Made by a program: the position numbers and the translations under genes. A stretch of DNA of 64,000 bases, taken from NCBI GenBank assembly GCA_017961585.1, contig JAGCWX010000028.1, forward strand, positions 124,001 through 188,000, in the 5' to 3' direction. This DNA is from Elusimicrobiaceae bacterium (lineage in GTDB: Bacteria; Elusimicrobiota; Elusimicrobia; Elusimicrobiales; Elusimicrobiaceae). Of this stretch, positions 9,424-59,461 are shown in pieces (the first letter of the stretch is position 1; every line of letters begins with the position of its first letter). Under the pieces are notes generated by a model. That model was not told the origin of the DNA. It saw only the letters and a list, made by a program, of their open reading frames with translations, and searched no databases.

Positions 9424-10644
9424 TCAACCATACCGTATGGCATCGGTGGGGTGCACGCGCGACGCTTTTAGTGCCGGGTACAACCCTGCCACAAAACAAA
9501 TCAAATAACTTCCGCCTACCACAGCTAAAATATCGCCCCATTGCATCCGCACCGGGACCTTGGTCAGATAGTAAATATCGCCGGGCAATTCCACAATGTT
9601 AAAGGTAGCAATCACCCAGCATAACAAGCAGGCCAGCAAAATCCCCAGTGCAATCCCCAGCGTAGCAATGACCAGGGCTTCCCACATAAAAATTTGACGG
9701 ATCATTTTTGGGCTGGCGCCGATAGCGCGCATAATGCCGATATCGCGCAGCTTTTCGGTCCCCAATAAAATCAAATTGCTGGCAATATTTAAAGAAGCCA
9801 CCCCAATAATCAAAAACAAAATGATAAACATCATTGTTTTTTCTAACTTAAGGGCCGCGTAAAGCGTGCTATTGAGTTGAGCAAATGTACGTACGGAATA
9901 GCCGTACCCAATAGCTTCATAAATTTTTTGCGCAGTTTTTTCAGCGTCGTTGATATTGTGGAGCTTTACAGCCACCCCGGTTGTGCCTTGTTTAAGCCCT
10001 AAAAAATCACTTGCGTGTGCAAGTAGCGTATAGGCAATCGTGTTATCAAATTCGTAATACCCGGTTTTAAGAAGCCCGCTAATACGGAATTTTTTCATCT
10101 TGGGGAACATCCCAGCTGAGGTGGAAATAGATTGTGGGGAAATCAGCACTACATCGTCGCCAATGTTGGCCCCCAACGTGGCAGCAAGCTCCGTTCCTAA
10201 TACCAAAGGCGGCGGGTCGTCTGTCGTCCAGCCCTCCGGTTCAAAGGTTCCTTCTACCAAGGAATCGGACAAATTGTTAATCTTTTTTTCTTGTTCCGGG
10301 TCCAACCCACGCACGATCAGCCCCAAGCTTTGCCCGGCGTGGGTAATAATACCTTGCCCGTAGATATGCGGAGCCGCGGCGGCCACTTCAGGGATTTTTT
10401 CAATGAGCGCAATGTTTTGTTGATATACTTCCGGGCTCATGTGTCCAAAAACCAAAATATGGCTTTGTGCGCCGATCACTTTGTCCTTAATATCCGTCTG
10501 AAAACCGTTCATCACAGACAGTGTGGTAATTAACGCCGCCACGCCGACCGACACCCCCGCCACGCCGATAAGCGTGGTAATAAAGGCAAATAAACCTTGG
10601 CGGCGGGTTAAATAGCGCACTGCCACTGAACGTGCAAAATTCAT
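9424..10644 (-). CDS. lolC: Lipoprotein-releasing system permease LolC/LolE
   Basis: 406 aa. It has the FtsX/LolC plan: an N-terminal helix (about residues 20-45, with the LolC-type phrase SVMNGFQTDIKDKVIGAQSHI after it), a large periplasmic MacB-like domain (45-270) and three C-terminal helices (about 270-385), including EKLRDIGIMRAIGASPKMI, the FtsX coupling motif. Only one permease gene is present, so the transporter is probably a homodimer (LolF-like). The ATG has no ribosome site; TGCTACAAT ends exactly six bases upstream, which predicts a leaderless mRNA. Confidence 0.93.
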   Translation of the reverse strand: MNFARSVAVRYLTRRQGLFAFITTLIGVAGVSVGVAALITTLSVMNGFQTDIKDKVIGAQSHILVFGHMSPEVYQQNIALIEKIPEVAAAAPHIYGQGIITHAGQSLGLIVRGLDPEQEKKINNLSDSLVEGTFEPEGWTTDDPPPLVLGTELAATLGANIGDDVVLISPQSISTSAGMFPKMKKFRISGLLKTGYYEFDNTIAYTLLAHASDFLGLKQGTTGVAVKLHNINDAEKTAQKIYEAIGYGYSVRTFAQLNSTLYAALKLEKTMMFIILFLIIGVASLNIASNLILLGTEKLRDIGIMRAIGASPKMIRQIFMWEALVIATLGIALGILLACLLCWVIATFNIVELPGDIYYLTKVPVRMQWGDILAVVGGSYLICFVAGLYPALKASRVHPTDAIRYG

Positions 10645-10650
10645 AAAACT

Positions 10651-10659
10651 ATTGTAGCA
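10651..10659 (-). promoter_or_regulatory. Extended -10 promoter of lolC, leaderless layout
   Basis: Minus strand TGCTACAAT, then AGTTTT and the ATG at 10644. With the hexamer at -12 to -7, the A of ATG is +1. No -35 is recognisable. Confidence 0.6.
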
Positions 10660-15235: not shown

Positions 15236-15694
15236 CTAAGCATCCAATACTTCTTCGGGCTTAAACCACAAGGCAATTTCGCGCTCGGCATCTTGCGCAT
15301 TGTCCGAGGCGTGCACACAGTTGTACACAATATCGGCCGCTTTATCAAACTTGCCAAAACTGCCGCGGATGGTATACGGAGCGGCATTATCCGGGTTGGT
15401 AGCGCCCAGCTCGGTGCGGATTTTGGCTACGCAGTCTTTGCCTTGAAATACAAACGCAATAATTTTATGATTAGAAATGTGGTTATAATCCCCCATCATA
15501 TAGCGGATGACCCCTTCCAAAAAGGGCTTGCCCGCTAAATGGGCATAATGTTGGCGGACCAATTCTTCCGTCAAAGAAACAGCTTTTGCCGCCACAATAT
15601 CCAGTCCCAAACGCTCCAAACGGTCTACTACCGCGCCGGTGAGCCGTTTTTCCAGCGTATCGGGTTTAATTAAAACTAAGCATCTTTCTTTCAT
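15236..15694 (-). CDS. ndk: Nucleoside diphosphate kinase
   Basis: 152 aa, full family length. It moves the gamma-phosphate of ATP to other nucleoside diphosphates through a phospho-His: the active site NCVHASDN is at about residues 126-133. Other family blocks are ERCLVLIKPDTLEKRLTG, HYAHLAGKPF and the nucleotide loop TIRGSFG. The promoter is near-consensus and its -10 ends six bases before the ATG, with no ribosome site, predicting a leaderless mRNA. The two degenerate hydrolase genes follow directly, so they should be co-transcribed. Confidence 0.96.
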   Translation of the reverse strand: MKERCLVLIKPDTLEKRLTGAVVDRLERLGLDIVAAKAVSLTEELVRQHYAHLAGKPFLEGVIRYMMGDYNHISNHKIIAFVFQGKDCVAKIRTELGATNPDNAAPYTIRGSFGKFDKAADIVYNCVHASDNAQDAEREIALWFKPEEVLDA

Positions 15695-15700
15695 ACAAAC

Positions 15701-15728
15701 ATTATAGCAATCTTGGGGGTATTGTCAA
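15701..15728 (-). promoter_or_regulatory. Consensus promoter of ndk, leaderless layout
   Basis: Minus strand TTGACA (15728-15723), 16-base spacer ending in TGC, TATAAT (15706-15701), then GTTTGT and ATG at 15694. All twelve core bases match sigma-70 consensus. Confidence 0.75.
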
Positions 15729-30187: not shown

Positions 30188-33100
30188 TTACCACGCATAC
30201 GCTAAGCCCACGTTACCGTAGCAGTTAGCGGATTTATTGTTCACACCGGCATCTAAGTTACCAAAGATCGTCCAGTGGTTGGTAAGCGCATAACTTACGC
30301 CCACCTGACCGCTAAAGTAGGTGCGGCCCAGTTCAGCACTGATAATTTCCATGCGTGTTCCGGGCAAGTCCAACGACATATGCAGTTTGGCATAATCACC
30401 GCCGATAAACTGTTTAACAGCGGCAGAACCGTACCAGTTGAATCTCTTACCGATTTTGCCTTCCACCTGCACCCCTAAGCGGGCTTGTGAGTTGAACTGA
30501 TGTTTGCTTTCTACGTGTAAGTTAAGGGCACCTGCACCCGTTTCCGTAAAGGATTTTAAGTGCGTATAGTTGCCCAATATTCCGGCAAACGGTTTGAGGT
30601 TGAGCCAATCATAGACGGCGATGTTATAACCACCTTCTAAGTCTAAGGCCATATTCAAACCATGATATTTTCCTTCGGCATTACGCGCCATGAAATCAAT
30701 GTTACGTTTACCGTGATAGGTTTGATATCCTCCGAACAAGGTTCCTTTGAAGACCCAGTTGCCCGGTCTGTACCCGCCGTAAATACCCAGGGATACATCA
30801 TCGATATCCATTCTATCGCTGTGTTGGCGCAAATCGCTCTTACCGGCACCACCGTATACACCTAAGAGTGCCTCATCAGAAGAACGATCATACCCTACTA
30901 ATACACCGGTCATGTTATTAGTAAAGCGCGGCGAATTTTCATCCGCATACACTTTATCGTACTGGCTATAATATTCTGCCCACACGTTGTCATGGCAAGT
31001 GGGACATTCGCCAGCCGAAGGGTTACGTTTCGCAATACGGTCATACACATGAGCCGTCTTGGCATTAAACAACGGAGTCAATGCACTGTTGGCATATAAC
31101 ACACCGTGTGTATCATCCAAGGCAGACTGTAAGGTGGACGCCGCATTAATGGTGGTAACCTCTTGCGGATTTAAGCCACCTAATTTTTCATATTGCAATA
31201 AAGCATTGGTAATGTCACCTTCATAACCGGTAGAGATAGCATCTATCGCACGAGCTACTTCACTTTGGTTGCGCGATAAACTTGTCGTTTCGGTATAATC
31301 GGTGGCTTTACGTTTTGCCAGTAAAACTACTTTCGTCGGATCGCTGTAATCTACTTCTACGTCAATGCGGCTAGCATCGTAGTCGGTAATAGTACCATCG
31401 TACGTAAATTCGCCTGCCACATTGCCGGCATCAACAATTTCAAACGACTTCCATTCAAAGTATCTTCCGTTTTCGTTGGATACTGTTAAGTTAGCTCCGT
31501 TAGCGATATTGGCATTACCTGTAATGACCAATTTATCACTGGCAGGAGTTTCATTAATTTCGATAGCCGTTGTACTACCGGAAGCGAAGTTTACATCTCC
31601 CGTAATCGTCAACGTATCAATACTGTTGCCAGGAGCAATGGTACCGCCGTTATTTACGTTTACAGTACCAGCAATATTGCCGTTACCGCGCAAGGTAGCA
31701 CCATTGTTGACATTCAATGCAGTAGTAACCGTTACATCACGGTTGGCAGCAAACGTACCCGCGTTAATATCCGCTTGGTTCGCGGTAAAAGCATTATCGG
31801 ATACGTTCAAAACAGCACTGCCGCTTTGGACGAAATTGCCCAAAGTGTTAATTTCGTTAAGTGTCGCATCGGTAGTATCGGTAAATTCAACCGTTGTATC
31901 AGCGGCACCGTTCACGATATTGTTGATATTTTGTGTATTCCCTACTAAGGTTCCTTCTTCTACGTAGGTATCACCCGCATAGCTGTTGGAATCCATCGCC
32001 AGGGTCATAGTACCGGCACCAAACTTATGGAAGTCGGCAGCGGACCCGATGTTGCCATTTAAGGTCAAGGCATCATCGTTTTGCACGTTTATATCATCCG
32101 CATCAGTTAAGCCCAACAAGTCGTTGGCTAATTCGCCAGCATCGGTTACTTGTAACATACTGGCACCGGCGAATAATACATTACCCGTACCTAAGTTGTC
32201 TTGACCGGCTACGGTTAAAGTAGCACCGTCAATCAACGTACCGCCCGCGTAAGAGTTAGAACCAGTTAGTATGGTGTCTTCGGTTACTTGGACATCCCCT
32301 TCACCGGAAATATCGCTAGCACCGGTAGAGGCCGCATCAAAGATGAGCGTACCATTGTTGGTAATACCGTTGGCCGCAATTAATCCGCTAGCCGCACCGC
32401 TAATCGTACCATCGTTGTTAATAGTATCGGTGTCGATGATAGCGTTATTGGTTACCGCAACACCTTCTTCCACATTCACGGAATCTTGCGTGATGTTCTT
32501 CTCCGCTATCAAATCAGCCAAGATGTTCATCTCGCCAGTACCGCTGATTTCTTCTTGTGTAGTACCACCGTCAGCATTTAAGATACCGTCGTTGGCCACG
32601 GCACCTTTTAAGTGAGTGACGTCGGAGTTTATAGTACCATTGTTACTAATAGCACCGGTAATATCGGCACTATTGTCTAATACGCCCTCGTTGATAAAAT
32701 CGGTGACATCGATCTCACCGCTATTGGTCATGTTGGCGTAGTTGGTTACGGTTTGTTGAGTAATCTCAAATCCATTGGTCAAATCTTCCGTAATATACAT
32801 CTGACCAAAATTTCCACCGCCGTCAATAGTACCCCGTACGGTACCGCCGGCAATGTTCAACGTACCACTGCTATTTACATCACCGTTCAAGTTATCGGCA
32901 GTGGAATTAATTACACCATTGCTACTATTAATAATAGTACCGGTAATCATGGCTTCGTTGTTAACCGTACCTTCATTATTATTAAAGATGGCAGCGTCGA
33001 TAGCCGCATTGTTGGTTAACGTACCGGCATTATTGTTAACGAGAGCTTGCTCAATGGCAGCATTGTTTACTACCTCATTCGTAAAGGTAGTGCTACCATC

Positions 33101-36100
33101 ACCTTGAATGGTGTTTTCGTTGGTACCACCGGTCAAGTTCAATACATTCGTGTTGGTAATACCATCAGCAAATGCGAGCAAGCTAGCATCAGAGGTGAAT
33201 GTCCCTTCGTTGGACAGGGACTTTTGGCTAATATTGCCTTCGTTTGAAACGGTTGCGCCGGACGCAATAGCTAATAAACCTTCACCGCTAATTTTATTAG
33301 CAGTTGTACCGTCGCCCAAGGTTAAGGAACCGGCGTTGGTGATACCGTTTACGGTGGTCAAATCACCTGCATCAGCAGTGAATTCACCTAACTTGGCAAT
33401 ATCAATGGTATCTTGAGTAATCGTGGCGCCAGAAGCATTCGCAACTGCAAGACCCGTTACCTTTAATGTACCGGCATTACCGGTAATGACGTTGGTGTTG
33501 GTGCCGGCTTGCATTTCAAAGATACCGTCGTTATCAATTCCATTTGTAGTAGTAATGTCATCCATATCGGCAGCTACAAACGTAGCAGCGCCGTCAATGG
33601 TAATAGTGTCTTGGTGAATTGTTCCATTGTTGGCGGTTTTGCCAAGAATTTGCAAATCACCTTCACCGTCGATGTTATTGAGGTTATCCCCATCTGCAAT
33701 GGCATACGTGCCTTCGTTGTGGATATCACCTTCAATATCGTCAGCTTCACTGGCTAAAACAGCACCGCTGTTAACGGTAACTTCGGCTTTAATTGTGCCT
33801 GCGTTTGCTAACGAATCACTGAAAACCGTCACGGTATCTTGTTCGATATTCGCTTGGTTGGTTACATCCCCTGTGGTAGTTAAGTTCCCGTTACCGGTAA
33901 TCACATTTTTGTTCGTACCGCCCGAGAAACCTAAATCACCCTCGTTCTTAATACCACCTATGGAGGCCAACAAGTCAGCATCGCTGGCTAACGTAGCCCC
34001 ATTGGCAATATTAATTTGGTTTTGGCTGATAGCAGCCGTATTGGCGATCATACCGCCGGTAACTTCCAAAGTACCGCCACCGCTGATGACGTTAGCGTTG
34101 GAGCCACCCGCATTCCAAATTAATTTTCCGTCGTTGGTAACAGCTGCTTCAACACTTTCGCTGTTAGTGGTTAAGGAACCACTTGCAGCGATGTTCAAAC
34201 CACTTTGAGTAATACTGCTGTTGTTAACCGTTGTACCCAAGATATTGGTGGTACCCGTACCGGAAATCATGCCTTCGGCTAAGATGTCGGCATCAATAAG
34301 GTCCGTGATACCACGGTTGTCTATGTTTTCATGTACATCAGTAGCAGTACCGTAATGGGCTCCCGTATTGACTTGAACTTTGGTATAAACGTCCGCCAAG
34401 TTCTGTACGGTTCCATCAATAAAGGTGGTACCGGTACCGGTAATTTCATTATTGTTGTCACCACTCGTGAAAGAAATGGCACTATCGTTGGTAATGCCGT
34501 TGGTGGTGGTAAGTAAGTCAGCCGCAGTAGTTAATTGACCGCTGCTAACCGTAATAGTATCTTGGCCGATGGCGGCCTTGTTGGTTACATCACCGGCAAT
34601 GGCCATGGAACCCGAACCATCAATAACGTTGGAGTTCGTGCCACCCGTGAGGGTTAAACCATCAGCTACATTATTGGTAATACCATTGGCAGAGGCCAAT
34701 AAGTCAGCGTCGCTGGTTAAAGAACCGCCGGTGATTTTAATCTTATTTTGTTCAATAGAAGCACTATTGACAATATCACCACCGGTAATGTCTAATTGAC
34801 CAACACCGCTAATTACATTTTCGTTAGCAGAACCAGCGGTCCACGTTAATTTACCGTCGTTGGTGACGGATGCTACTATGGATTCCGCATCGGTCGCAAA
34901 ATTACCGCTATTGGCAATTTTTAACGCTTCTTGCATGATAGTACCGGTATTGACGGTCTCTCCTAAGATAGAAGTCGTACCACCCGCACCAATAATATCA
35001 TTGGCATTATCGCCATCGGTAATAACATAAGAGCCGGTATTTCCGATAGAACCGTTAATATTGGCCCCGTCACTAGTCAACGTGCCAGAGTTCACCACAT
35101 CTGCAGTAATTAAGGCATTATTCTTTAAGTTTCCCTTGTTATTTACCAATGCTTGGTCGATTGTATTGTTGTTGGAAACATTATTCGTGAAGGTGGTAGT
35201 CCCCCCACCGGTAATTGCATTGGTATTCGTACCGCCCGTGATATTTAAAGCACTCTCGTTGACTACACTTGCTGCGGTTAACAAGTCCGCATGGGTGTTA
35301 AAAGTACTGTTGTTGGTCAAAGTACCGGTTAAGGTAATGTGACCTTCGTTGTCAAACGTACCCTTGTTTTCTAAAGAAGCTTGGGCAATTGTACCTTTGT
35401 TGGAAGAAACTCCCTCTTTGGTAGTAATCGAACCCACCCCTTCAATGGCGTTGGTGTTGGTAAGGTTCGCATCTACCGTACCGTTGTTGGTAAAGATACT
35501 ACTATTGCTTACCGTGGTTTGGTCAATATCACCGTTGTTGGTTACATATCCGGTAATATCTATGCGGCCGGAACCGGTAATTGTGTTGCCAGTGGCCCCT
35601 GCCGTATAGTTAATGATACCATCGTTAGCAATCTCGTTGCTAGCGGTCATGTTTGACGCATTGGTAGTAACTACTTTACCAGACGCCACTTTAATATCTG
35701 CTTGAGCGATAGAACCGTTGTTGGTTAAATCCCCATTGATGTCCGTTTCACCATCTCCAGTGATGGCCACAGACAAAGTTCCGTCCGCATTTAGGTCTAA
35801 CAAACCGTCGTTGGCAACATCATCCCCTAAATGATCCGGATCGGAGTAAATAGTAGAACCGGCCTCATTGCTCGCTTTGGCCAACAGCATACCGTTGTTG
35901 GTGAAAGTGGCATTGTTGCTGATATTTACTAATTTCTGCGTGAAATCCCCGTTGTTGGTAGAATCCCCGGTGATGTTGGTAGTGCCCAGGCCGGTTACTT
36001 CGCCATCGTTGGTGAAGTTTACGACATTGGCAGTACCACCATTGTAAAAACTATCGTTGTTTTGCAACGTAGTGGCGGTTAATGAACCGTCGTTAATTTC

Positions 36101-37273
36101 AACATCCGCGGCGTTAGTCAATGTATCAACAGTCAAGGAACCGTCGTTGATTTCAACCATACCCGTGGAATTGTTTTCCAAAGAAGCCAAGTAGGCATCC
36201 CCGTCATCCAACCGGAAAGTACCGCTGTTATCAAAAGTGGCAGCCGTACCGGAAACGTTCATGGTACCGCCATCTTGATAGAAAGTAGCCCCAGCAGCGT
36301 TGGCTACCTCATTAAATGACATATCGCCGCTATTGGCTATGTAACCGCTGCCGGTATTTTCAATAGCGTTGGCATTAAACAATCCGGAGTTGTAAATATC
36401 ACCGGAGTTAGTGATTGCACCGGTGTTATCGCTGTTATCAAACGTGGCACCGGATTCGTTGCTAATCTCGCCTGCGTTCACAACGTCCGTCGTAACCATG
36501 ATCGTTTTGGTATTGGTTACCGTTTTTCCGGTTTCCGTTTCCAAATTGGTTAACGAAACGATACCGTCGTTTTCAAAGTCAGCAGATGCCACTAAAGACG
36601 TTTGATCAATATTATAGGCATTGCTCACATCCCCTGTAATAAACAGGTTCCCGTCCCCATTAATGGCATCTTGGGTGGAACCGCCTTCCAACGTGAGGGA
36701 GTTGTTATTAGTTACCGCACCCACTAAATTAGTGGCGCTGGAAACCAATGCCCCTTCGTTGGTAATGGTGGTAGCCGTAATGGCTGCATTGTTGTCTAAA
36801 TTGGTTGTGCTGGCTACGGTAACGGCGTTTTGAGTTATCGCATTATCATTGGTAACATCGCCATCCGTTTTAAAATTAAAAGTCCCGTCATCTCCAGTTA
36901 CGGTACCACCCGTGAGGGAGGTCCCGGAATAGTCCAGGGTACCGGCGTTGACAATGCTACCTTCAATGTCGTTACCTAGACCAAAAGAAACTCCACTTGC
37001 TACATCAATTAATGTGTCGTTCGTGGAGTTTTGTGTTAATTTTGCGCCCGTTACGGTAGAACCGTCAGCGTCAACAGATAACGTCCCATTAGGGGCATCA
37101 TCTGCGGTTAGCGCAGTAGCTACGTTGTAGTCGCCGGGAGTAGTTGCAATACCCGTCCGCAAATCATCCCAGTTGCTCACATCGGTGGCCAAAGCAAACC
37201 CACTTTGCCACGTCATAAAAGCAATGCTCAACGTAACCGAAAGCACTTTTTGAAACACTTTCGATAGAGGCAT
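30188..37273 (-). CDS. Giant repeat-rich autotransporter adhesin-like protein (type Va)
   Basis: 2361 aa from the ATG at 37273, behind AAAGGAGAG; a possible start 23 codons upstream is less likely. Residues 1-30 are a signal peptide (MPLSKVFQKVLSVTLSIAFM... ending FALA). The passenger (about 31-1650) is rich in Asn, Thr, Gly and Asp, poor in Lys, Arg and aromatics, and Cys-free; about 19 repeats share the core [T/S]N-x4-I-x-Q-x3. Residues 1660-1990 carry PATR-type segments (SNSYAGGTLIDGATLTV, GAGTMTLAMDSNSYAGDTYV, NNGGTIAPGNSIDTLTITGDV). A CPTC motif at 2090-2093 leads to a C-terminal autotransporter beta barrel (about 2095-2361) ending AYAW. It should be secreted through its own barrel and stay on the surface; the ligand is unknown. 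Confidence 0.93.
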   Translation of the reverse strand: MPLSKVFQKVLSVTLSIAFMTWQSGFALATDVSNWDDLRTGIATTPGDYNVATALTADDAPNGTLSVDADGSTVTGAKLTQNSTNDTLIDVASGVSFGLGNDIEGSIVNAGTLDYSGTSLTGGTVTGDDGTFNFKTDGDVTNDNAITQNAVTVASTTNLDNNAAITATTITNEGALVSSATNLVGAVTNNNSLTLEGGSTQDAINGDGNLFITGDVSNAYNIDQTSLVASADFENDGIVSLTNLETETGKTVTNTKTIMVTTDVVNAGEISNESGATFDNSDNTGAITNSGDIYNSGLFNANAIENTGSGYIANSGDMSFNEVANAAGATFYQDGGTMNVSGTAATFDNSGTFRLDDGDAYLASLENNSTGMVEINDGSLTVDTLTNAADVEINDGSLTATTLQNNDSFYNGGTANVVNFTNDGEVTGLGTTNITGDSTNNGDFTQKLVNISNNATFTNNGMLLAKASNEAGSTIYSDPDHLGDDVANDGLLDLNADGTLSVAITGDGETDINGDLTNNGSIAQADIKVASGKVVTTNASNMTASNEIANDGIINYTAGATGNTITGSGRIDITGYVTNNGDIDQTTVSNSSIFTNNGTVDANLTNTNAIEGVGSITTKEGVSSNKGTIAQASLENKGTFDNEGHITLTGTLTNNSTFNTHADLLTAASVVNESALNITGGTNTNAITGGGTTTFTNNVSNNNTIDQALVNNKGNLKNNALITADVVNSGTLTSDGANINGSIGNTGSYVITDGDNANDIIGAGGTTSILGETVNTGTIMQEALKIANSGNFATDAESIVASVTNDGKLTWTAGSANENVISGVGQLDITGGDIVNSASIEQNKIKITGGSLTSDADLLASANGITNNVADGLTLTGGTNSNVIDGSGSMAIAGDVTNKAAIGQDTITVSSGQLTTAADLLTTTNGITNDSAISFTSGDNNNEITGTGTTFIDGTVQNLADVYTKVQVNTGAHYGTATDVHENIDNRGITDLIDADILAEGMISGTGTTNILGTTVNNSSITQSGLNIAASGSLTTNSESVEAAVTNDGKLIWNAGGSNANVISGGGTLEVTGGMIANTAAISQNQINIANGATLASDADLLASIGGIKNEGDLGFSGGTNKNVITGNGNLTTTGDVTNQANIEQDTVTVFSDSLANAGTIKAEVTVNSGAVLASEADDIEGDIHNEGTYAIADGDNLNNIDGEGDLQILGKTANNGTIHQDTITIDGAATFVAADMDDITTTNGIDNDGIFEMQAGTNTNVITGNAGTLKVTGLAVANASGATITQDTIDIAKLGEFTADAGDLTTVNGITNAGSLTLGDGTTANKISGEGLLAIASGATVSNEGNISQKSLSNEGTFTSDASLLAFADGITNTNVLNLTGGTNENTIQGDGSTTFTNEVVNNAAIEQALVNNNAGTLTNNAAIDAAIFNNNEGTVNNEAMITGTIINSSNGVINSTADNLNGDVNSSGTLNIAGGTVRGTIDGGGNFGQMYITEDLTNGFEITQQTVTNYANMTNSGEIDVTDFINEGVLDNSADITGAISNNGTINSDVTHLKGAVANDGILNADGGTTQEEISGTGEMNILADLIAEKNITQDSVNVEEGVAVTNNAIIDTDTINNDGTISGAASGLIAANGITNNGTLIFDAASTGASDISGEGDVQVTEDTILTGSNSYAGGTLIDGATLTVAGQDNLGTGNVLFAGASMLQVTDAGELANDLLGLTDADDINVQNDDALTLNGNIGSAADFHKFGAGTMTLAMDSNSYAGDTYVEEGTLVGNTQNINNIVNGAADTTVEFTDTTDATLNEINTLGNFVQSGSAVLNVSDNAFTANQADINAGTFAANRDVTVTTALNVNNGATLRGNGNIAGTVNVNNGGTIAPGNSIDTLTITGDVNFASGSTTAIEINETPASDKLVITGNANIANGANLTVSNENGRYFEWKSFEIVDAGNVAGEFTYDGTITDYDASRIDVEVDYSDPTKVVLLAKRKATDYTETTSLSRNQSEVARAIDAISTGYEGDITNALLQYEKLGGLNPQEVTTINAASTLQSALDDTHGVLYANSALTPLFNAKTAHVYDRIAKRNPSAGECPTCHDNVWAEYYSQYDKVYADENSPRFTNNMTGVLVGYDRSSDEALLGVYGGAGKSDLRQHSDRMDIDDVSLGIYGGYRPGNWVFKGTLFGGYQTYHGKRNIDFMARNAEGKYHGLNMALDLEGGYNIAVYDWLNLKPFAGILGNYTHLKSFTETGAGALNLHVESKHQFNSQARLGVQVEGKIGKRFNWYGSAAVKQFIGGDYAKLHMSLDLPGTRMEIISAELGRTYFSGQVGVSYALTNHWTIFGNLDAGVNNKSANCYGNVGLAYAW
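32470..36850 (-). repeat. About 19 degenerate repeats in the autotransporter passenger
   Basis: The core N-x4-I-x-Q occurs about 19 times between residues 146 and 1600, on average 80 residues apart and about 65 in the most regular stretch (residues 700-900). Between cores recur TGGTN-x-N-x-I-x-G-x-G, then a strand pair, then SDADLLAS-x-x-GITN. The pattern predicts a long beta helix, each repeat adding several coils. DNA-level identity between copies is low, so the repeats are old. Confidence 0.8.
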
Positions 37274-37432
37274 GTATTTTCTCTCCTTTTTGAAATAAAA
37301 AAGACAACTTATTTTAACATTATTTTTGATAATCTGCATCAAAAAATTTTTTTCAAGAATACCGGCCCCATACAGGCCTTTGTGGCCCCAACTCAGCGGT
37401 TAGATTCCCCGATAGGTCCCGACCCTTTAATT

Positions 37433-42218: not shown

Positions 42219-42431
42219 TTATTTGTCCAAATTATTGAGCGCACGCATGCGGTTTTCCTGTGCCGCATCCAGCTGATGTTGCACTTGCTGCGCCCGTTGC
42301 AACGCATTCATTTGGGTGGAGTGCTGCTCTTTTACCGTGCTTTTAAATTGTGGTAAAAATATCGCCAGCAATAGAGTGATTATCACCAATGCTACCAACA
42401 TGCTTAAAAAAGAGAGCCCTCTTTTGTTCAT
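42219..42431 (-). CDS. Very short pilin-like protein lacking Glu5
   Basis: 70 aa. MNKRG then LSFLSMLVALVIITLLLAIFLPQFKSTVKEQ: a basic leader ending in Gly, a pilin-type hydrophobic helix ending in P-x-F/Y, and then a charged coil rich in Gln (40-70) instead of a globular domain. Position +5 is Ser, not Glu, as in some minor (pseudo)pilins such as the GspK/PilX type, although those are much larger. Could be a tip or initiation component or simply a short membrane helix protein. TATAAT lies seven bases before the ATG and there is no ribosome site. Confidence 0.6.
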   Translation of the reverse strand: MNKRGLSFLSMLVALVIITLLLAIFLPQFKSTVKEQHSTQMNALQRAQQVQHQLDAAQENRMRALNNLDK

Positions 42432-42438
42432 ATATTTT

Positions 42439-42444
42439 ATTATA
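42439..42444 (-). promoter_or_regulatory. -10 box of the short pilin-like gene, near-leaderless
   Basis: Minus strand TATAAT, seven bases before the ATG at 42431; no -35 seen. Confidence 0.4.
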
Positions 42445-46423: not shown

Positions 46424-46452
46424 TTGCGGCACAAATGCAATAATGCTACAAT
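46424..46452 (+). promoter_or_regulatory. Promoter of fRMsr gene, leaderless layout
   Basis: TTGCGG (46424-46429), 17-base spacer ending in TGC, TACAAT (46447-46452), then six bases (ACCTAC) to the ATG at 46459. No ribosome site. Confidence 0.65.
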
Positions 46453-46458
46453 ACCTAC

Positions 46459-46920
46459 ATGACCAAAATTCAATCGTACGAACTTTTACTGCGTCAATTG
46501 GAAGGGCTTTTATCTATAGAGACAGACTCAGTAGCCAATATGGCTAATATGTCCGCTGTATTGTTTAATGAACTGGAAAATTTGAACTGGGCCGGGTTTT
46601 ATGTCTTGCGCGAAGGGACTTTGGTCCTAGGCCCCTTTCAAGGCAAGCCGGCTTGTGTGCGCATTGCCCTGGGCAAGGGCGTGTGCGGCACCGCAGCGCA
46701 AACCGGGCAAACGCAACGAGTGGAAGATGTTCACCAATTCCCCGGGCATATCGCGTGCGACAGTGCCTCTAATAGCGAAATCGTTATCCCTATCTTCAAA
46801 AACGGCGCCGTGTGGGGTGTATTGGACATAGATTCCCCTGTTTTGGCCCGCTTTGACCAAACCGACCGGCTTTACTTGGAAAAATCCGTCAAATTGTTTG
46901 AGAAATATACCCATCTATAG
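46459..46920 (+). CDS. Free methionine-(R)-sulfoxide reductase (GAF domain)
   Basis: 153 aa, single GAF domain. NLNWAGFYVLREGTLVLGPFQGKPACVRIALGKGVCG and HIACDSASNSEIVIPI contain the three cysteines (66, 76, 100) used by the fRMsr family to reduce free L-methionine-R-sulfoxide; DIDSP near the C-terminus is also conserved. It repairs oxidised methionine in the cytoplasm. Divergent from the ferredoxin oxidoreductase operon. The reading frame starts at the position where transcription is predicted to begin. Confidence 0.9.
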   Translation: MTKIQSYELLLRQLEGLLSIETDSVANMANMSAVLFNELENLNWAGFYVLREGTLVLGPFQGKPACVRIALGKGVCGTAAQTGQTQRVEDVHQFPGHIACDSASNSEIVIPIFKNGAVWGVLDIDSPVLARFDQTDRLYLEKSVKLFEKYTHL

Positions 46921-51925: not shown

Positions 51926-52623
51926 TAAAATTTCTCCGTCCACATCAGGGTTTTGTATTGGGAAACCGCTAACTGCCGCGCTTGTTCCAGCCAAGATTTT
52001 TCTACCCTTCGCACGTGCAAAGTAGTATTTAAAAAGCCGCGCACCCCTGCAATAACCGCCTGTTTATAGACGGGGTTTTTCCGCGCATCCGGTGCCTGCA
52101 AAGACCCTTGATAAAGCACCGTAGTTCCAAACCGCCGGATGGCTCCGCCCAACATTTTCTGCCCGGTAGGCAGCAGCAAATCGTTTTCTACGGGGTTTAC
52201 AAAACAGGCATTGGCCGTGTGATGTTGGCTGGGAGCATAGGCCTGGGCCGGCAATTTTTGGGTAAACACTTGGGTTTGCACGCCGCTTAAAACCAGTGCG
52301 GCCTCAATGGATTTGTGCAACTGTTTATAAATTTCGCTGGGCTTTTCTTCAGAATTAAAAACGAGCGAGAACGTTAAATCCCCCTCGTGATATACTACTC
52401 CGCCCCCGGTTGGGCGGCGGCACATTTCGCCGGCAAAATTTCTGTTGGCTACTTCGCGGTACACTTCGCTGATAAACTGTGCATAACCAAACGTAACGGC
52501 CGCACCCGGTTTCCAATTATAAAAGCGCAGCGTACTCTCCCCGGCGCGCAGGCGCACCACGGTTTCATCCAAAGCCATGTGTTCAAACACATCTAGCGGT
52601 GGGGTGGTCAGCAGCAAATTCAT
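51925..52623 (-). CDS. LipM-like octanoyl-/lipoyltransferase (BPL/LPL family)
   Basis: 232 aa. The family block CRRPTGGGVVYHEGDLTFSLVF (68-89) and GQKMLGGAIRRF (Lys near 145) define the cofactor-transferase fold. Cys140 in ACFVNPVEND sits at the place of the catalytic Cys of LipM (octanoyl transfer through a thioester). GcvH, encoded 3 kb upstream on the same strand, is an obvious acceptor. The gene is separated from gcvPB by a terminator and has its own promoter with the -10 nine bases before the ATG. A lipoate ligase (LplA) activity is the alternative. Confidence 0.82.
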   Translation of the reverse strand: MNLLLTTPPLDVFEHMALDETVVRLRAGESTLRFYNWKPGAAVTFGYAQFISEVYREVANRNFAGEMCRRPTGGGVVYHEGDLTFSLVFNSEEKPSEIYKQLHKSIEAALVLSGVQTQVFTQKLPAQAYAPSQHHTANACFVNPVENDLLLPTGQKMLGGAIRRFGTTVLYQGSLQAPDARKNPVYKQAVIAGVRGFLNTTLHVRRVEKSWLEQARQLAVSQYKTLMWTEKF

Positions 52624-52632
52624 CTTGTCAAA

Positions 52633-52641
52633 ATTATATCA
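52633..52641 (-). promoter_or_regulatory. Extended -10 promoter of lipM-like gene
   Basis: Minus strand TGATATAAT, then nine bases to the ATG at 52623; the predicted leader is three bases. No ribosome site. Confidence 0.55.
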
Positions 52642-55929: not shown

Positions 55930-57006
55930 TTACACTCTATTTTTATAAAAAGGGGTTTTAACAACTTCAGCCGGAACTTTGCGACCGTGGATTTCAATTT
56001 CCACTTCCGCTCCGACGGCAATTTCACTGGCCACGTATCCTACCGCAATGCCTTTAAACAAGGGTGAGAACGTGCCGCTGGTAAGCGTGCCGGCCTCTAC
56101 GCCTTGATAAAAGACCTTGCAACCTTCGCGCGGCACACCGGGCGTTTTGAGTTTAAACGCTTTTAATTTGGTTTTAAATCCGGCTGCTTTTTTGGCTTCC
56201 AGCGCGGCCTTGCCGATGAAGTTTTCTTTGGTGAGTTTAACCACCCAACCACAGTTGGCTTCATACGGGGTTTTGGTTTGGTTGGCATCGGCCCCGTTGA
56301 GCAGATACCCCGCCTCCAGGCGTAGCACGTCGCGCGCACCCAGACCGCACGGCTTGACACCTAATTTCAATAACGCGTTCCACAGCGCTTCAATTTGCGC
56401 GTTGGGCAGCATAATTTCCACGCCGTCCTCACCGGTATATCCCGTACGGGTGACGTAACCCTTGACACCAAAAAGTTCAATTTCTTGGATGTGAAAGCGC
56501 GGTAAATCAATTACGCCGGGGATAATTTTATCGGCAATCCCCACAGCGCTGGGGCCTTGCAGAGCAATCATACCCCACTGGGCACTTTCGTTAGTGACTT
56601 TAACGTCAAACGCTTGGGCTTGTTTTTCAAACCACGCAAAATCTTCGTCCACACACGCCGCGTTTACAACAACTAAAAACTCTTCCGTTGATAAACAAAA
56701 CGCGATAGCGTCGTCGATAATGGTGCCTTGCTCGGTTAGGATATGAAAATAAGTTCCGGCGGCAGGCTCACTCTTAATGATGTTGCAACTGACGTATTGC
56801 AGCAGGTGCAACGCCTCTTTGCCGACGATGCGCAACTGCCCCATGTGGGACACGTCAAACATCCCCGCGGCTTCACGCACGGCTTTGTGTTCGGCAATAA
56901 TGCTATCAAACTGGACGGGCAAGAGCCATCCGTGGAAATCTACCATTTTTCCGCCCGCTTTTTCGCATGCGGCGCACAGGGCGGTTTTTTTAAGTTCATG
57001 TGTCAT
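55930..57006 (-). CDS. gcvT: Glycine cleavage system T protein (aminomethyltransferase)
   Basis: 358 aa. KTALCAACEKAGGKMVDFHGWLLPVQF at the start, AGMFDVSHMGQLRI, QGPSAVGI, GYTGEDGVEIMLPN and GLGARDVLRLEAGY match GcvT. It transfers the one-carbon unit to tetrahydrofolate, giving 5,10-methylene-THF and ammonia. First gene of the operon. There is no ribosome site and no glycine riboswitch in the 89-base upstream gap; TACAAT ends six bases before the ATG. Confidence 0.96.
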   Translation of the reverse strand: MTHELKKTALCAACEKAGGKMVDFHGWLLPVQFDSIIAEHKAVREAAGMFDVSHMGQLRIVGKEALHLLQYVSCNIIKSEPAAGTYFHILTEQGTIIDDAIAFCLSTEEFLVVVNAACVDEDFAWFEKQAQAFDVKVTNESAQWGMIALQGPSAVGIADKIIPGVIDLPRFHIQEIELFGVKGYVTRTGYTGEDGVEIMLPNAQIEALWNALLKLGVKPCGLGARDVLRLEAGYLLNGADANQTKTPYEANCGWVVKLTKENFIGKAALEAKKAAGFKTKLKAFKLKTPGVPREGCKVFYQGVEAGTLTSGTFSPLFKGIAVGYVASEIAVGAEVEIEIHGRKVPAEVVKTPFYKNRV

Positions 57007-57012
57007 AGTTTT

Positions 57013-57042
57013 ATTGTATAAAATTGAGATTAATTTTCACAA
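57013..57042 (-). promoter_or_regulatory. gcvT promoter, leaderless layout
   Basis: Minus strand TTGTGA (57042-57037), 18-base spacer, TACAAT (57018-57013), then AAAACT and ATG at 57006. Confidence 0.5.
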
Positions 57043-57083
57043 CTTACCACAGGACCCAGAAATTTCCCCTAAGCCAAGTTTAG

Positions 57084-57089
57084 TATAAT
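57084..57089 (+). promoter_or_regulatory. -10 box of the DUF45 metallopeptidase, leaderless layout
   Basis: TATAAT followed by six bases (ATAAAT) and the ATG at 57096. No ribosome site. Back to back with the gcvT promoter. Confidence 0.5.
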
Positions 57090-57095
57090 ATAAAT

Positions 57096-57791
57096 ATGGC
57101 AGATACACAAACCACCATTAGTGACGTAAAACTATTCTTGGAGCGCCTTAAAAAAGACTTGCCCGAAATCTTTGGTAAAGATGCTACTAAAGCCGCCAAA
57201 GAGGGTGAGCCGAACGCTCAGCCCGCGCCCGAAAACACCGTGCTTTTCAATGGGGACTTATTTCCCGCGCAAATGTACCTAACGCCCGACCAAGAACCCG
57301 GTGTGGCATTTGACGGAAAAGCTTTCCACGTGTATTTGCAAACCGCGCAGGACGATCCCTGCACCCTGGTGACCGATTGGCTCAAAAACAACGCGCAGGA
57401 AACCCTCACAAAAAAAACGGCGGATTGGGCCCAAAAAATGGGGGTGGAATTTAATCAAATTTTTATTAAAGACCAGCGCACCTTGTGGGCCAGTTGCTCG
57501 GGCAAAAAGAACCTCAATTTTTCGTACCGCATTGTAAAGATGCCGCCCGCCGTACAAGATTATTTAATGGTGCACGAACTGGGGCATTTGACCTATATGA
57601 ACCACGGGGCAGAGTACTGGGCGTTGGTGGCACAATTCTGCCCGGATTATAAAATCCACCGCCGCTGGCTCAACGAAAATAGAGACGCTATCTTTGCCGA
57701 TGTGCAACTAACTTACACCCCACCGCAAGGACAGCCCGGCTCAACAACATCAGAAACGCAACCGCCCGAAACTTCTCAAGAAACAAAATAA
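57096..57791 (+). CDS. DUF45 (YgjP/WLM-like) zinc metallopeptidase
   Basis: 231 aa, no signal peptide. Residues 25-60 are Ala/Pro/Glu-rich and probably flexible. The core domain (70-205) has IKDQRTLWASCSGKKNLNFSYRIVKMPPAVQDYLMVHELGHLTYMNHGAEYWALV, with HELGH (about 162-166) and a third ligand His in NHGAEYW, the M48/DUF45 pattern. C-terminal tail is Pro/Thr/Glu-rich. Family members resemble YgjP, whose role is unclear. Divergent from gcvT. Confidence 0.83.
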   Translation: MADTQTTISDVKLFLERLKKDLPEIFGKDATKAAKEGEPNAQPAPENTVLFNGDLFPAQMYLTPDQEPGVAFDGKAFHVYLQTAQDDPCTLVTDWLKNNAQETLTKKTADWAQKMGVEFNQIFIKDQRTLWASCSGKKNLNFSYRIVKMPPAVQDYLMVHELGHLTYMNHGAEYWALVAQFCPDYKIHRRWLNENRDAIFADVQLTYTPPQGQPGSTTSETQPPETSQETK

Positions 57792-58919: not shown

Positions 58920-59449
58920 TGTGCGCGCTCCTTTTTACCAAATAATACGCCGCACAAAACGGCTACCAACACCACGTACACCGGGGAAATTTTTAACAGC
59001 CATACTGCTAGCGCGACCGCCACGCACACCCACACGGTTTTCAGCGTAACACCGGCCGATTTGGCCAGTGTAAACACCGGCACCAAAATAAGAGCCACCA
59101 CGGCCGGGCGCACGCCCATAAAAACACGTTGCACAAACGGATTTTCGGCAAATTTTCTGAAAAATAGTGCAATGAGCAAAATGATGATAAACGACGGTAA
59201 CGCCGCCCCCAACGCCGCCGCACACGCACCCGGCACGCGGCAGAGGCGATAGCCCGTCAAAATAGCCACGTTAATAGCCATAATGCCGGGGGCCGATTGT
59301 GCCACCGCGGTGATGTCTAAAAAATCTTGTTTGGATAGATACGGCCCAACCAGCTCACGTTCCATTAAAGGGAGCATAGCATAGCCGCCGCCCAGCGTAA
59401 ATAAGCCGATTTTGGCAAAAATAAAAAATAGTTTGGCGAGTGTTCTCAC
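58916..59449 (-). CDS. Chromate transporter family protein, half subunit 1
   Basis: 177 aa from GTG at 59449 (a TTG one codon earlier is possible). LFFIFAKIGLFTLGGGYAMLPLMERELV, LDITAVAQSAPGIMAINVAILTGY, five to six helices. GTG is favoured because TACAAT (59461-59456) ends six bases before it, the same spacing seen at other promoters here, and no ribosome site exists. It is coupled to subunit 2 by ATGA. Confidence 0.82.
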   Translation of the reverse strand: MRTLAKLFFIFAKIGLFTLGGGYAMLPLMERELVGPYLSKQDFLDITAVAQSAPGIMAINVAILTGYRLCRVPGACAAALGAALPSFIIILLIALFFRKFAENPFVQRVFMGVRPAVVALILVPVFTLAKSAGVTLKTVWVCVAVALAVWLLKISPVYVVLVAVLCGVLFGKKERAQ

Positions 59450-59455
59450 CAAACT

Positions 59456-59461
59456 ATTGTA
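59456..59461 (-). promoter_or_regulatory. -10 box of the chromate transporter pair
   Basis: Minus strand TACAAT, then AGTTTG and GTG at 59449; predicts a leaderless mRNA with a GTG start. Confidence 0.4.

What the first reader, a model, noticed from the sequence alone, without database searches (positions are those of the whole stretch)
15692..15728. Recurring promoter layout predicts leaderless mRNAs for many genes
In front of ndk the minus strand reads TTGACA, 16 bases, TATAAT, exactly six bases, then ATG, with no ribosome site. If the -10 hexamer occupies -12 to -7, the A of ATG is +1. The same six-base gap from -10 to start codon recurs at lolC (TGCTACAAT at 10659-10651), the fRMsr gene (TGCTACAAT at 46444-46452), gcvT (TACAAT at 57018-57013), the DUF45 peptidase (TATAAT at 57084-57089) and the chromate transporter (TACAAT at 59461-59456, GTG start). 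Near variants are lipM-like (nine bases) and the short pilin (seven). Most genes with a good Shine-Dalgarno in this window have the -10 much farther away. Leaderless genes as a regular class are, as far as I know, not described for this group.
Basis: partly seen in the sequence, partly recalled or inferred. Interest (0 to 1): 0.7.

Follow-up and report, generated by a model that had tools for sequence, protein, structure and literature searches.

The report
Leaderless genes in Elusimicrobia
Sequence evidence indicates that in this gut bacterium, and in most of its class, several dozen everyday genes have their promoter placed so that the RNA begins exactly at the start codon, with no leader or ribosome-binding site; this mode is known in other bacteria, but I found no description of it for this group.

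Summary
All six listed genes have TATAAT or TACAAT exactly six bases before the start codon. In 1,169 genes called without looking at upstream motifs, TAYAAT sits six bases before the start in 58; other spacings average about 3, and 51 of 590 operon-first genes compare with 1.2 in shuffles. These genes lack Shine-Dalgarno sites (0/58 strong, against 39% of the rest) and are mostly first in their operons. They carry T at -1 (91%) and have no hidden downstream SD start (0/58). Promoters further upstream of SD-led genes show the same extended -10 profile and an A preference exactly seven bases after the box, where the A of ATG lies in the leaderless class. The ndk arrangement is kept across the genus; in four relatives the box stays and an SD leader has been inserted. 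Class Elusimicrobia shows the d=6 excess in 94 of 98 genomes; sister classes show little or none. The 16S anti-SD is intact in relatives, so both modes coexist. Best reading: a regular leaderless class of about 60-90 genes (5-8%), a new lineage for a known mechanism. Transcription and translation remain inferred; no RNA data exist here.

The parts
15692..15728 (-). ndk promoter and start: -35 TTGACA 15728-15723, 16-nt spacer, -10 TATAAT 15706-15701, 6-nt gap, ATG 15694-15692
15236..15694 (-). ndk, nucleoside diphosphate kinase (PF00334, residues 3-149)
10642..10659 (-). lolC-like FtsX/MacB permease: TGCTACAAT, 6 nt, ATG 10644
46444..46461 (+). fRMsr-like GAF protein: TGCTACAAT, 6 nt, ATG 46459
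57004..57018 (-). gcvT: TACAAT, 6 nt, ATG 57006
   Evidence: ortholog in G046 has an SD leader instead
57084..57098 (+). DUF45/YgjP-like metallopeptidase: TATAAT, 6 nt, ATG 57096; divergent partner of gcvT, 89 bp apart
59447..59461 (-). chromate transporter: TACAAT, 6 nt, GTG 59449
   Evidence: ortholog in G046 also at d=6 but with ATG
52621..52638 (-). lipM-like gene: TATAAT nine bases before ATG 52623 (near variant)
42429..42444 (-). short pilin-like ORF: TATAAT seven bases before ATG 42431 (near variant)

Best explanation
These are leaderless genes. A sigma-70-type extended -10 promoter (consensus AAAtTtGcTATAATA, -35 usually weak) lies so that the RNA polymerase start point, seven bases after the box, is the A of the start codon. 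The mRNA then begins with AUG and has no SD, so translation would start by direct recognition of the 5'-terminal AUG by the ribosome with initiator tRNA. About 60-90 genes (5-8%, roughly 10-14% of operon-first genes) use it in this genome beside a working SD system. Shown from sequence: box identity, exact spacing, SD absence, start-codon identity, evolutionary retention. Inferred: actual TSS, and translation of the leaderless mRNA.
For: Spacing peak 58 at d=6, 0 at d=5, 10 at d=7; shuffle null 1.16. No SD>=5 in 58 (rest 438/1111, p=1e-12), T at -1 in 53/58 (p=1e-8), operon-first 51/590 against inner 7/562 (p=3e-9). Ten further boxes lie at d=6 of alternative in-frame ATGs and none at out-of-frame ATGs. 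0/58 have an internal in-frame SD start. Promoters 18-61 nt upstream of SD-led genes share the profile and have A in 57/89 exactly at the position of the ATG's A. N-termini fit family profiles from residue 1-4 in RuvA, RsmI-type methylase, NDK, FTCD, FolD, deformylase. ndk d=6 in nearly all genus relatives, leader inserted behind the kept box in four. 13 exact-d6 genes with orthologs in G046: 10 keep d=6 (strict or one mismatch), 2 have an SD leader. Class-wide: d6/d9 ratio 2.5, 94/98 genomes. 16S ends CCTCCTTT in relatives.
Against: No RNA 5'-end data for any member. Some genes could have additional upstream promoters giving leadered transcripts. Orthologs in genus g12 (G103) keep exact d=6 in only 1 of 12 (2 more at 7-8; some at d=5), so the spacing is looser there. 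The 16S of this very genome is missing from the assembly, so its anti-SD is taken from relatives. The genome was sampled at 1.378 of 1.489 Mb.
Confidence: 0.92

Rival explanations
1. Chance: AT-rich upstream regions contain TATAAT-like boxes at any distance and the reader picked those at six.
For: Promoter-like boxes do occur at many distances, about 3 per spacing per 590 operon-first genes.
Against: 51 against a shuffle mean of 1.16 and maximum of 4; neighbouring spacings 0 and 9; in-frame only; conserved in orthologs.
Confidence: 0.01
2. The box makes a transcript starting at the annotated ATG, but true translation starts at an internal codon with its own SD, so the gene has a normal short leader and the annotation is too long.
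For: Start misannotation of this kind is known in principle; 74/1169 genes do have an internal SD-start candidate.
Against: 0 of 58 d=6 genes have such an internal start; family profiles and ortholog alignments begin at residue 1-4 in many.
Confidence: 0.03
3. Mixed transcripts: the d=6 promoter is real but secondary, and much of the protein comes from longer, leadered transcripts of upstream promoters.
For: Some d=6 genes lie 13-50 nt behind a co-directional gene and could be co-transcribed (7 of 562 inner genes).
Against: Most d=6 genes follow an opposite-strand neighbour or a long gap and have no SD, so a longer transcript would have no ribosome site either.
Confidence: 0.15
4. TATAAT at six bases is a translation element (AT-rich unstructured initiation region), not a promoter.
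For: Upstream A/T enrichment aids initiation in SD-poor bacteria (established knowledge).
Against: Full extended -10 context (TGn, A at -18/-17), identical to boxes far upstream of SD genes; concentrated at operon-first genes; box retained when a leader and SD are inserted.
Confidence: 0.02

Closest known systems
TA-led (leaderless) genes surveyed over 953 bacterial genomes (Zheng et al. 2011, PMC3160421)
   Same: A Pribnow-like box placed just upstream of the start codon so that TSS and start codon coincide, in genomes that also use SD; TATAAT pattern with TG in low- and medium-GC genomes.
   Different: The positive groups named there do not include Elusimicrobia; 8 of 20 'Other Bacteria' were positive and unnamed in the text. 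Here the spacing is sharp, and orthologous switches and a class-level distribution are shown.
-10-motif adjacent to ORFs in Deinococcus-Thermus (Zhong et al. 2025, PMC12340547)
   Same: -10 box 6-7 bp before the ORF acting as promoter, often without need of a -35, giving leaderless mRNA.
   Different: There TANNNT/TACACT and about one third of genes, tested experimentally; here TAYAAT with extended -10, 5-8% of genes, sequence evidence only.
Leaderless transcriptome of mycobacteria (PMC3898074, PMC4633059)
   Same: Leaderless and SD genes coexist with a normal anti-SD.
   Different: Titles and abstracts only were seen here; from memory the fraction there is higher, about a quarter of transcripts, and RNA-mapped.

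Membership tests
Leaderless genes (TA-led class of Zheng 2011) | -10-like box about 10-12 bp upstream of the start codon, above chance | tested here: met
   58 TAYAAT at d=6 against about 3; shuffle null 1.16
Leaderless genes (TA-led class of Zheng 2011) | No Shine-Dalgarno in front of these genes | tested here: met
   0/58 SD>=5 and 5/58 SD>=4 against 60% of the rest; the SD4 hits shown overlap the AGG/AAGG just before the box
Leaderless genes (TA-led class of Zheng 2011) | Box is a transcription promoter of the main sigma factor | tested here: met
   by sequence only: same extended -10 context as distal promoters; sigma binding not tested
Leaderless genes (TA-led class of Zheng 2011) | mRNA 5' end at or within about 5-8 nt of the start codon | not testable with these tools
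   indirect: TSS signature A at +7 after the box in distal promoters, T-1/A+1 in the class
Leaderless genes (TA-led class of Zheng 2011) | Translation from a 5'-terminal AUG | not testable with these tools
   start-codon identity supported by profiles and orthologs
Leaderless genes (TA-led class of Zheng 2011) | Trait conserved in orthologs and relatives | tested here: met
   ndk tree, leaderless in 21 of 26 family rows plus one at 7-8; 10 of 13 in G046; class-wide d6/d9 2.5
Deinococcus-type '-10-motif' genes (Zhong 2025) | About one third of genes and function without -35 | tested here: inconclusive
   fraction only 5-8% here; -35 weak in most but ndk has a perfect TTGACA

The most novel reading that the evidence does not exclude
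In class Elusimicrobia leaderless expression is an old, conserved programme for a set of housekeeping genes (ruvA, smpB, def, pheS, era, lipA, ndk, gcvT and others) driven by extended -10 promoters that lack the A-tract upstream element of leadered genes. The two sets could therefore be controlled separately by growth state. Start codons are anchored by the promoter, and genes switch mode by inserting an SD leader behind an unchanged box.
Probability: 0.25. Interest if true: 0.6.

Novelty: new member of a known kind. Interest (0 to 1): 0.45.

Why it matters
It adds a gut- and environment-dwelling phylum to the bacteria that routinely use leaderless mRNAs. It shows a marked difference between sister classes, and gives orthologous pairs (ndk, gcvT) in which a promoter stays put while a gene gains a leader, so the switch between the two initiation modes can be studied directly. 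It also improves start-codon annotation for these genomes: ten starts chosen by a motif-blind caller look wrong and can be corrected by the d=6 rule.

Tried and rejected
A mixture model (EM) on the -18..-7 region was captured by the purine-rich SD signal and gave meaningless fractions; simple spacing counts were used instead. The first cross-genome control, TATAATN10ATG, is in a different codon phase from N6 and exaggerated the contrast with sister classes (ratio 0.79 there). The in-phase control N9 gives 2.5 in the class, 1.3 in one large sister family (f11) and about 1.07 in the rest, so 'absent elsewhere' was softened to 'weak or absent'. The own-genome 16S is not in the assembly; relatives' 16S was used.

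Full report
What was claimed.

The letters. All six cases are where stated. For ndk, on the minus strand: TTGACA 15728-15723, 16 bases, TATAAT 15706-15701, GTTTGT, ATG 15694. The two near variants are also right: nine bases for the lipM-like gene, seven for a short pilin-like ORF at ATG 42431. Pfam confirms NDK, FtsX/MacB permease, GAF protein, GCV_T, YgjP-like peptidase and chromate transporter. The organism is an uncultured Elusimicrobiaceae bacterium near 'Elusimicrobium sp.' rumen MAGs and Candidatus Avelusimicrobium.

More than chance. I read 1.378 of the 1.489 Mb of the genome and called 1,183 genes with a codon-pair model that ignores upstream motifs. For 1,169 genes the number with TAYAAT at each distance d before the start is 4,3,1,0,2,0,58,10,9,6,3,4,1 for d=0-12. 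In 590 operon-first genes 51 are seen; dinucleotide shuffles give 1.16, maximum 4. Allowing one mismatch the excess at d=6 in operon-first genes is about 72. Ten more boxes stand at d=6 before another in-frame ATG within 90 bases, and none before an out-of-frame ATG. Of all 52 TATAATN6ATG matches in the sampled genome, 47 lie outside coding sequence, against 9 of 22 for N10. I put the class at about 60-90 genes.

Nature of the box. The d=6 boxes carry an extended -10 context: A-rich at -18/-17, T at -15, G at -14, C/G at -13, A at -6, T at -1 (91%). The 89 boxes that lie 18-61 nt upstream of SD-led genes show the same context. In these, A is found in 57 of 89 exactly seven bases after the box, well above the neighbouring positions (p=1e-7). 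That is the likely +1 of this organism's promoters, and it is the position of the A of ATG in the d=6 class. This is the strongest indirect evidence that transcription starts on the start codon.

No ribosome site and the right start codon. None of 58 has SD>=5 against 438 of 1,111 others. None has an internal in-frame start with an SD. Family profiles begin at the first residues in RuvA (1/1), the RsmI-type methylase (1/1), NDK, FTCD, FolD, TatD and peptide deformylase, so these ATGs are very probably true N-termini. Start codons are ATG in 57 of 58. The class is concentrated at operon-first genes (51/590 against 7/562).

The rest of the translation apparatus looks ordinary: 16S genes of genus members end in CCTCCTTT, and 57% of genes have SD>=4. 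Leaderless and SD modes coexist.

Evolution. In ndk the layout TATAAT, six bases, ATG is kept through nearly all the genus rows, with the bases GTTTGT identical in several of the nearest relatives. Where the N-terminus has extra residues (L016, L026-L028), the upstream ATG still sits six bases behind the box. In L033, L034, L038 and L040 the box is kept, but a leader of some 20-30 bases with AAGG replaces the immediate ATG (TATAATATGCGTATG in L039 against TATAATATGCGTATATATCTATATAAGGACTTTTTATG in L038). On the ndk tree these leadered rows are nested inside leaderless ones, so the leader was most simply gained there. Rows from more distant Elusimicrobiota carry classic SD leaders or boxes at 9-10. 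gcvT likewise has an SD leader behind a TATACAAT box in G046. Of 13 exact-d6 genes with an ortholog in the G046 sample, 10 keep d=6 (strict or one mismatch) and 2 have an SD leader. In genus g12 (G103) the spacing is looser, at 5-7.

Distribution. Counting TATAATN6ATG against the in-phase control TATAATN9ATG in 162 tabulated genomes of the phylum sample: own genus 3.6, rest of family 2.3, f2 2.1, f7 2.5, f8 3.5; 94 of 98 genomes of the class are above 1. Sister classes: f11 1.3, the other families together 1.07 (not significant). Exceptions in the class are f4 (0.76), f9 and f10 (few counts). An earlier control, N10, was out of codon phase and exaggerated the contrast. Across the class d=5 is low and d=7 mostly intermediate.

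Novelty. Leaderless genes recognised by a box just before the start codon are an established kind (PMC3160421; PMC12340547; PMC3898074). Only two papers in the open library hold both 'leaderless' and 'Elusimicrobi', one a survey of anti-SD types and one unrelated. The 2011 survey names the positive groups without Elusimicrobia, but 20 unnamed 'Other Bacteria' may include one. So this is a new lineage for a known mechanism, with a sharp spacing and clear leader-gain cases.

What is shown and what is inferred. Shown: the layout, its statistics, SD absence, start identity, conservation and distribution. Inferred: that transcription starts at the A, and that ribosomes start on the 5'-terminal AUG. 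A secondary, longer transcript for some genes is not excluded.

Noticed in passing
window 57004-57098: gcvT and the DUF45/YgjP-like gene are a divergent pair, 89 bp apart, both leaderless-type; the only such pair among 140 divergent pairs sampled. Similar tight pairs of TATAATN6ATG appear in relatives (G011:C15:4325-/4368+, G039:C15:507-/534+).
   Followed up: partly
own genome, promoters of d=6 genes versus SD-led genes: An A-rich tract 28-33 bases upstream of the -10 box (UP-element-like) is present at SD-led promoters (41% A) but absent at leaderless ones (27% A, p=2e-5).
   Followed up: partly
G142 and G177 (family f4, genus g18): These two class members lack the d=6 excess but have high TATAATN7ATG counts (47 and 52 against 30 and 24 for N9); the listed matches show no clear T at -1, so the meaning is unclear.
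   Followed up: no
genus g12 (G103, loci L230-L246): In a sister genus of the family the box spacing is spread over 5-7 instead of sharply 6, and several orthologs of d=6 genes have d=5.
   Followed up: partly
L008, L026, L028 (ndk): ndk proteins with a few extra N-terminal residues (such as MRYMERT): the upstream ATG keeps its six-base (in L008 eight-base) distance from the box, as if the promoter fixes the start codon.
   Followed up: partly
own genome, 10 genes listed: Starts chosen by coding potential alone are probably wrong for ten genes; an in-frame ATG six bases behind a TAYAAT box, often beginning MKK or MRK, is the likelier start.
   Followed up: partly
window 30188-37342, minus strand: Open frame of 2,384 codons; not examined.
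   Followed up: no
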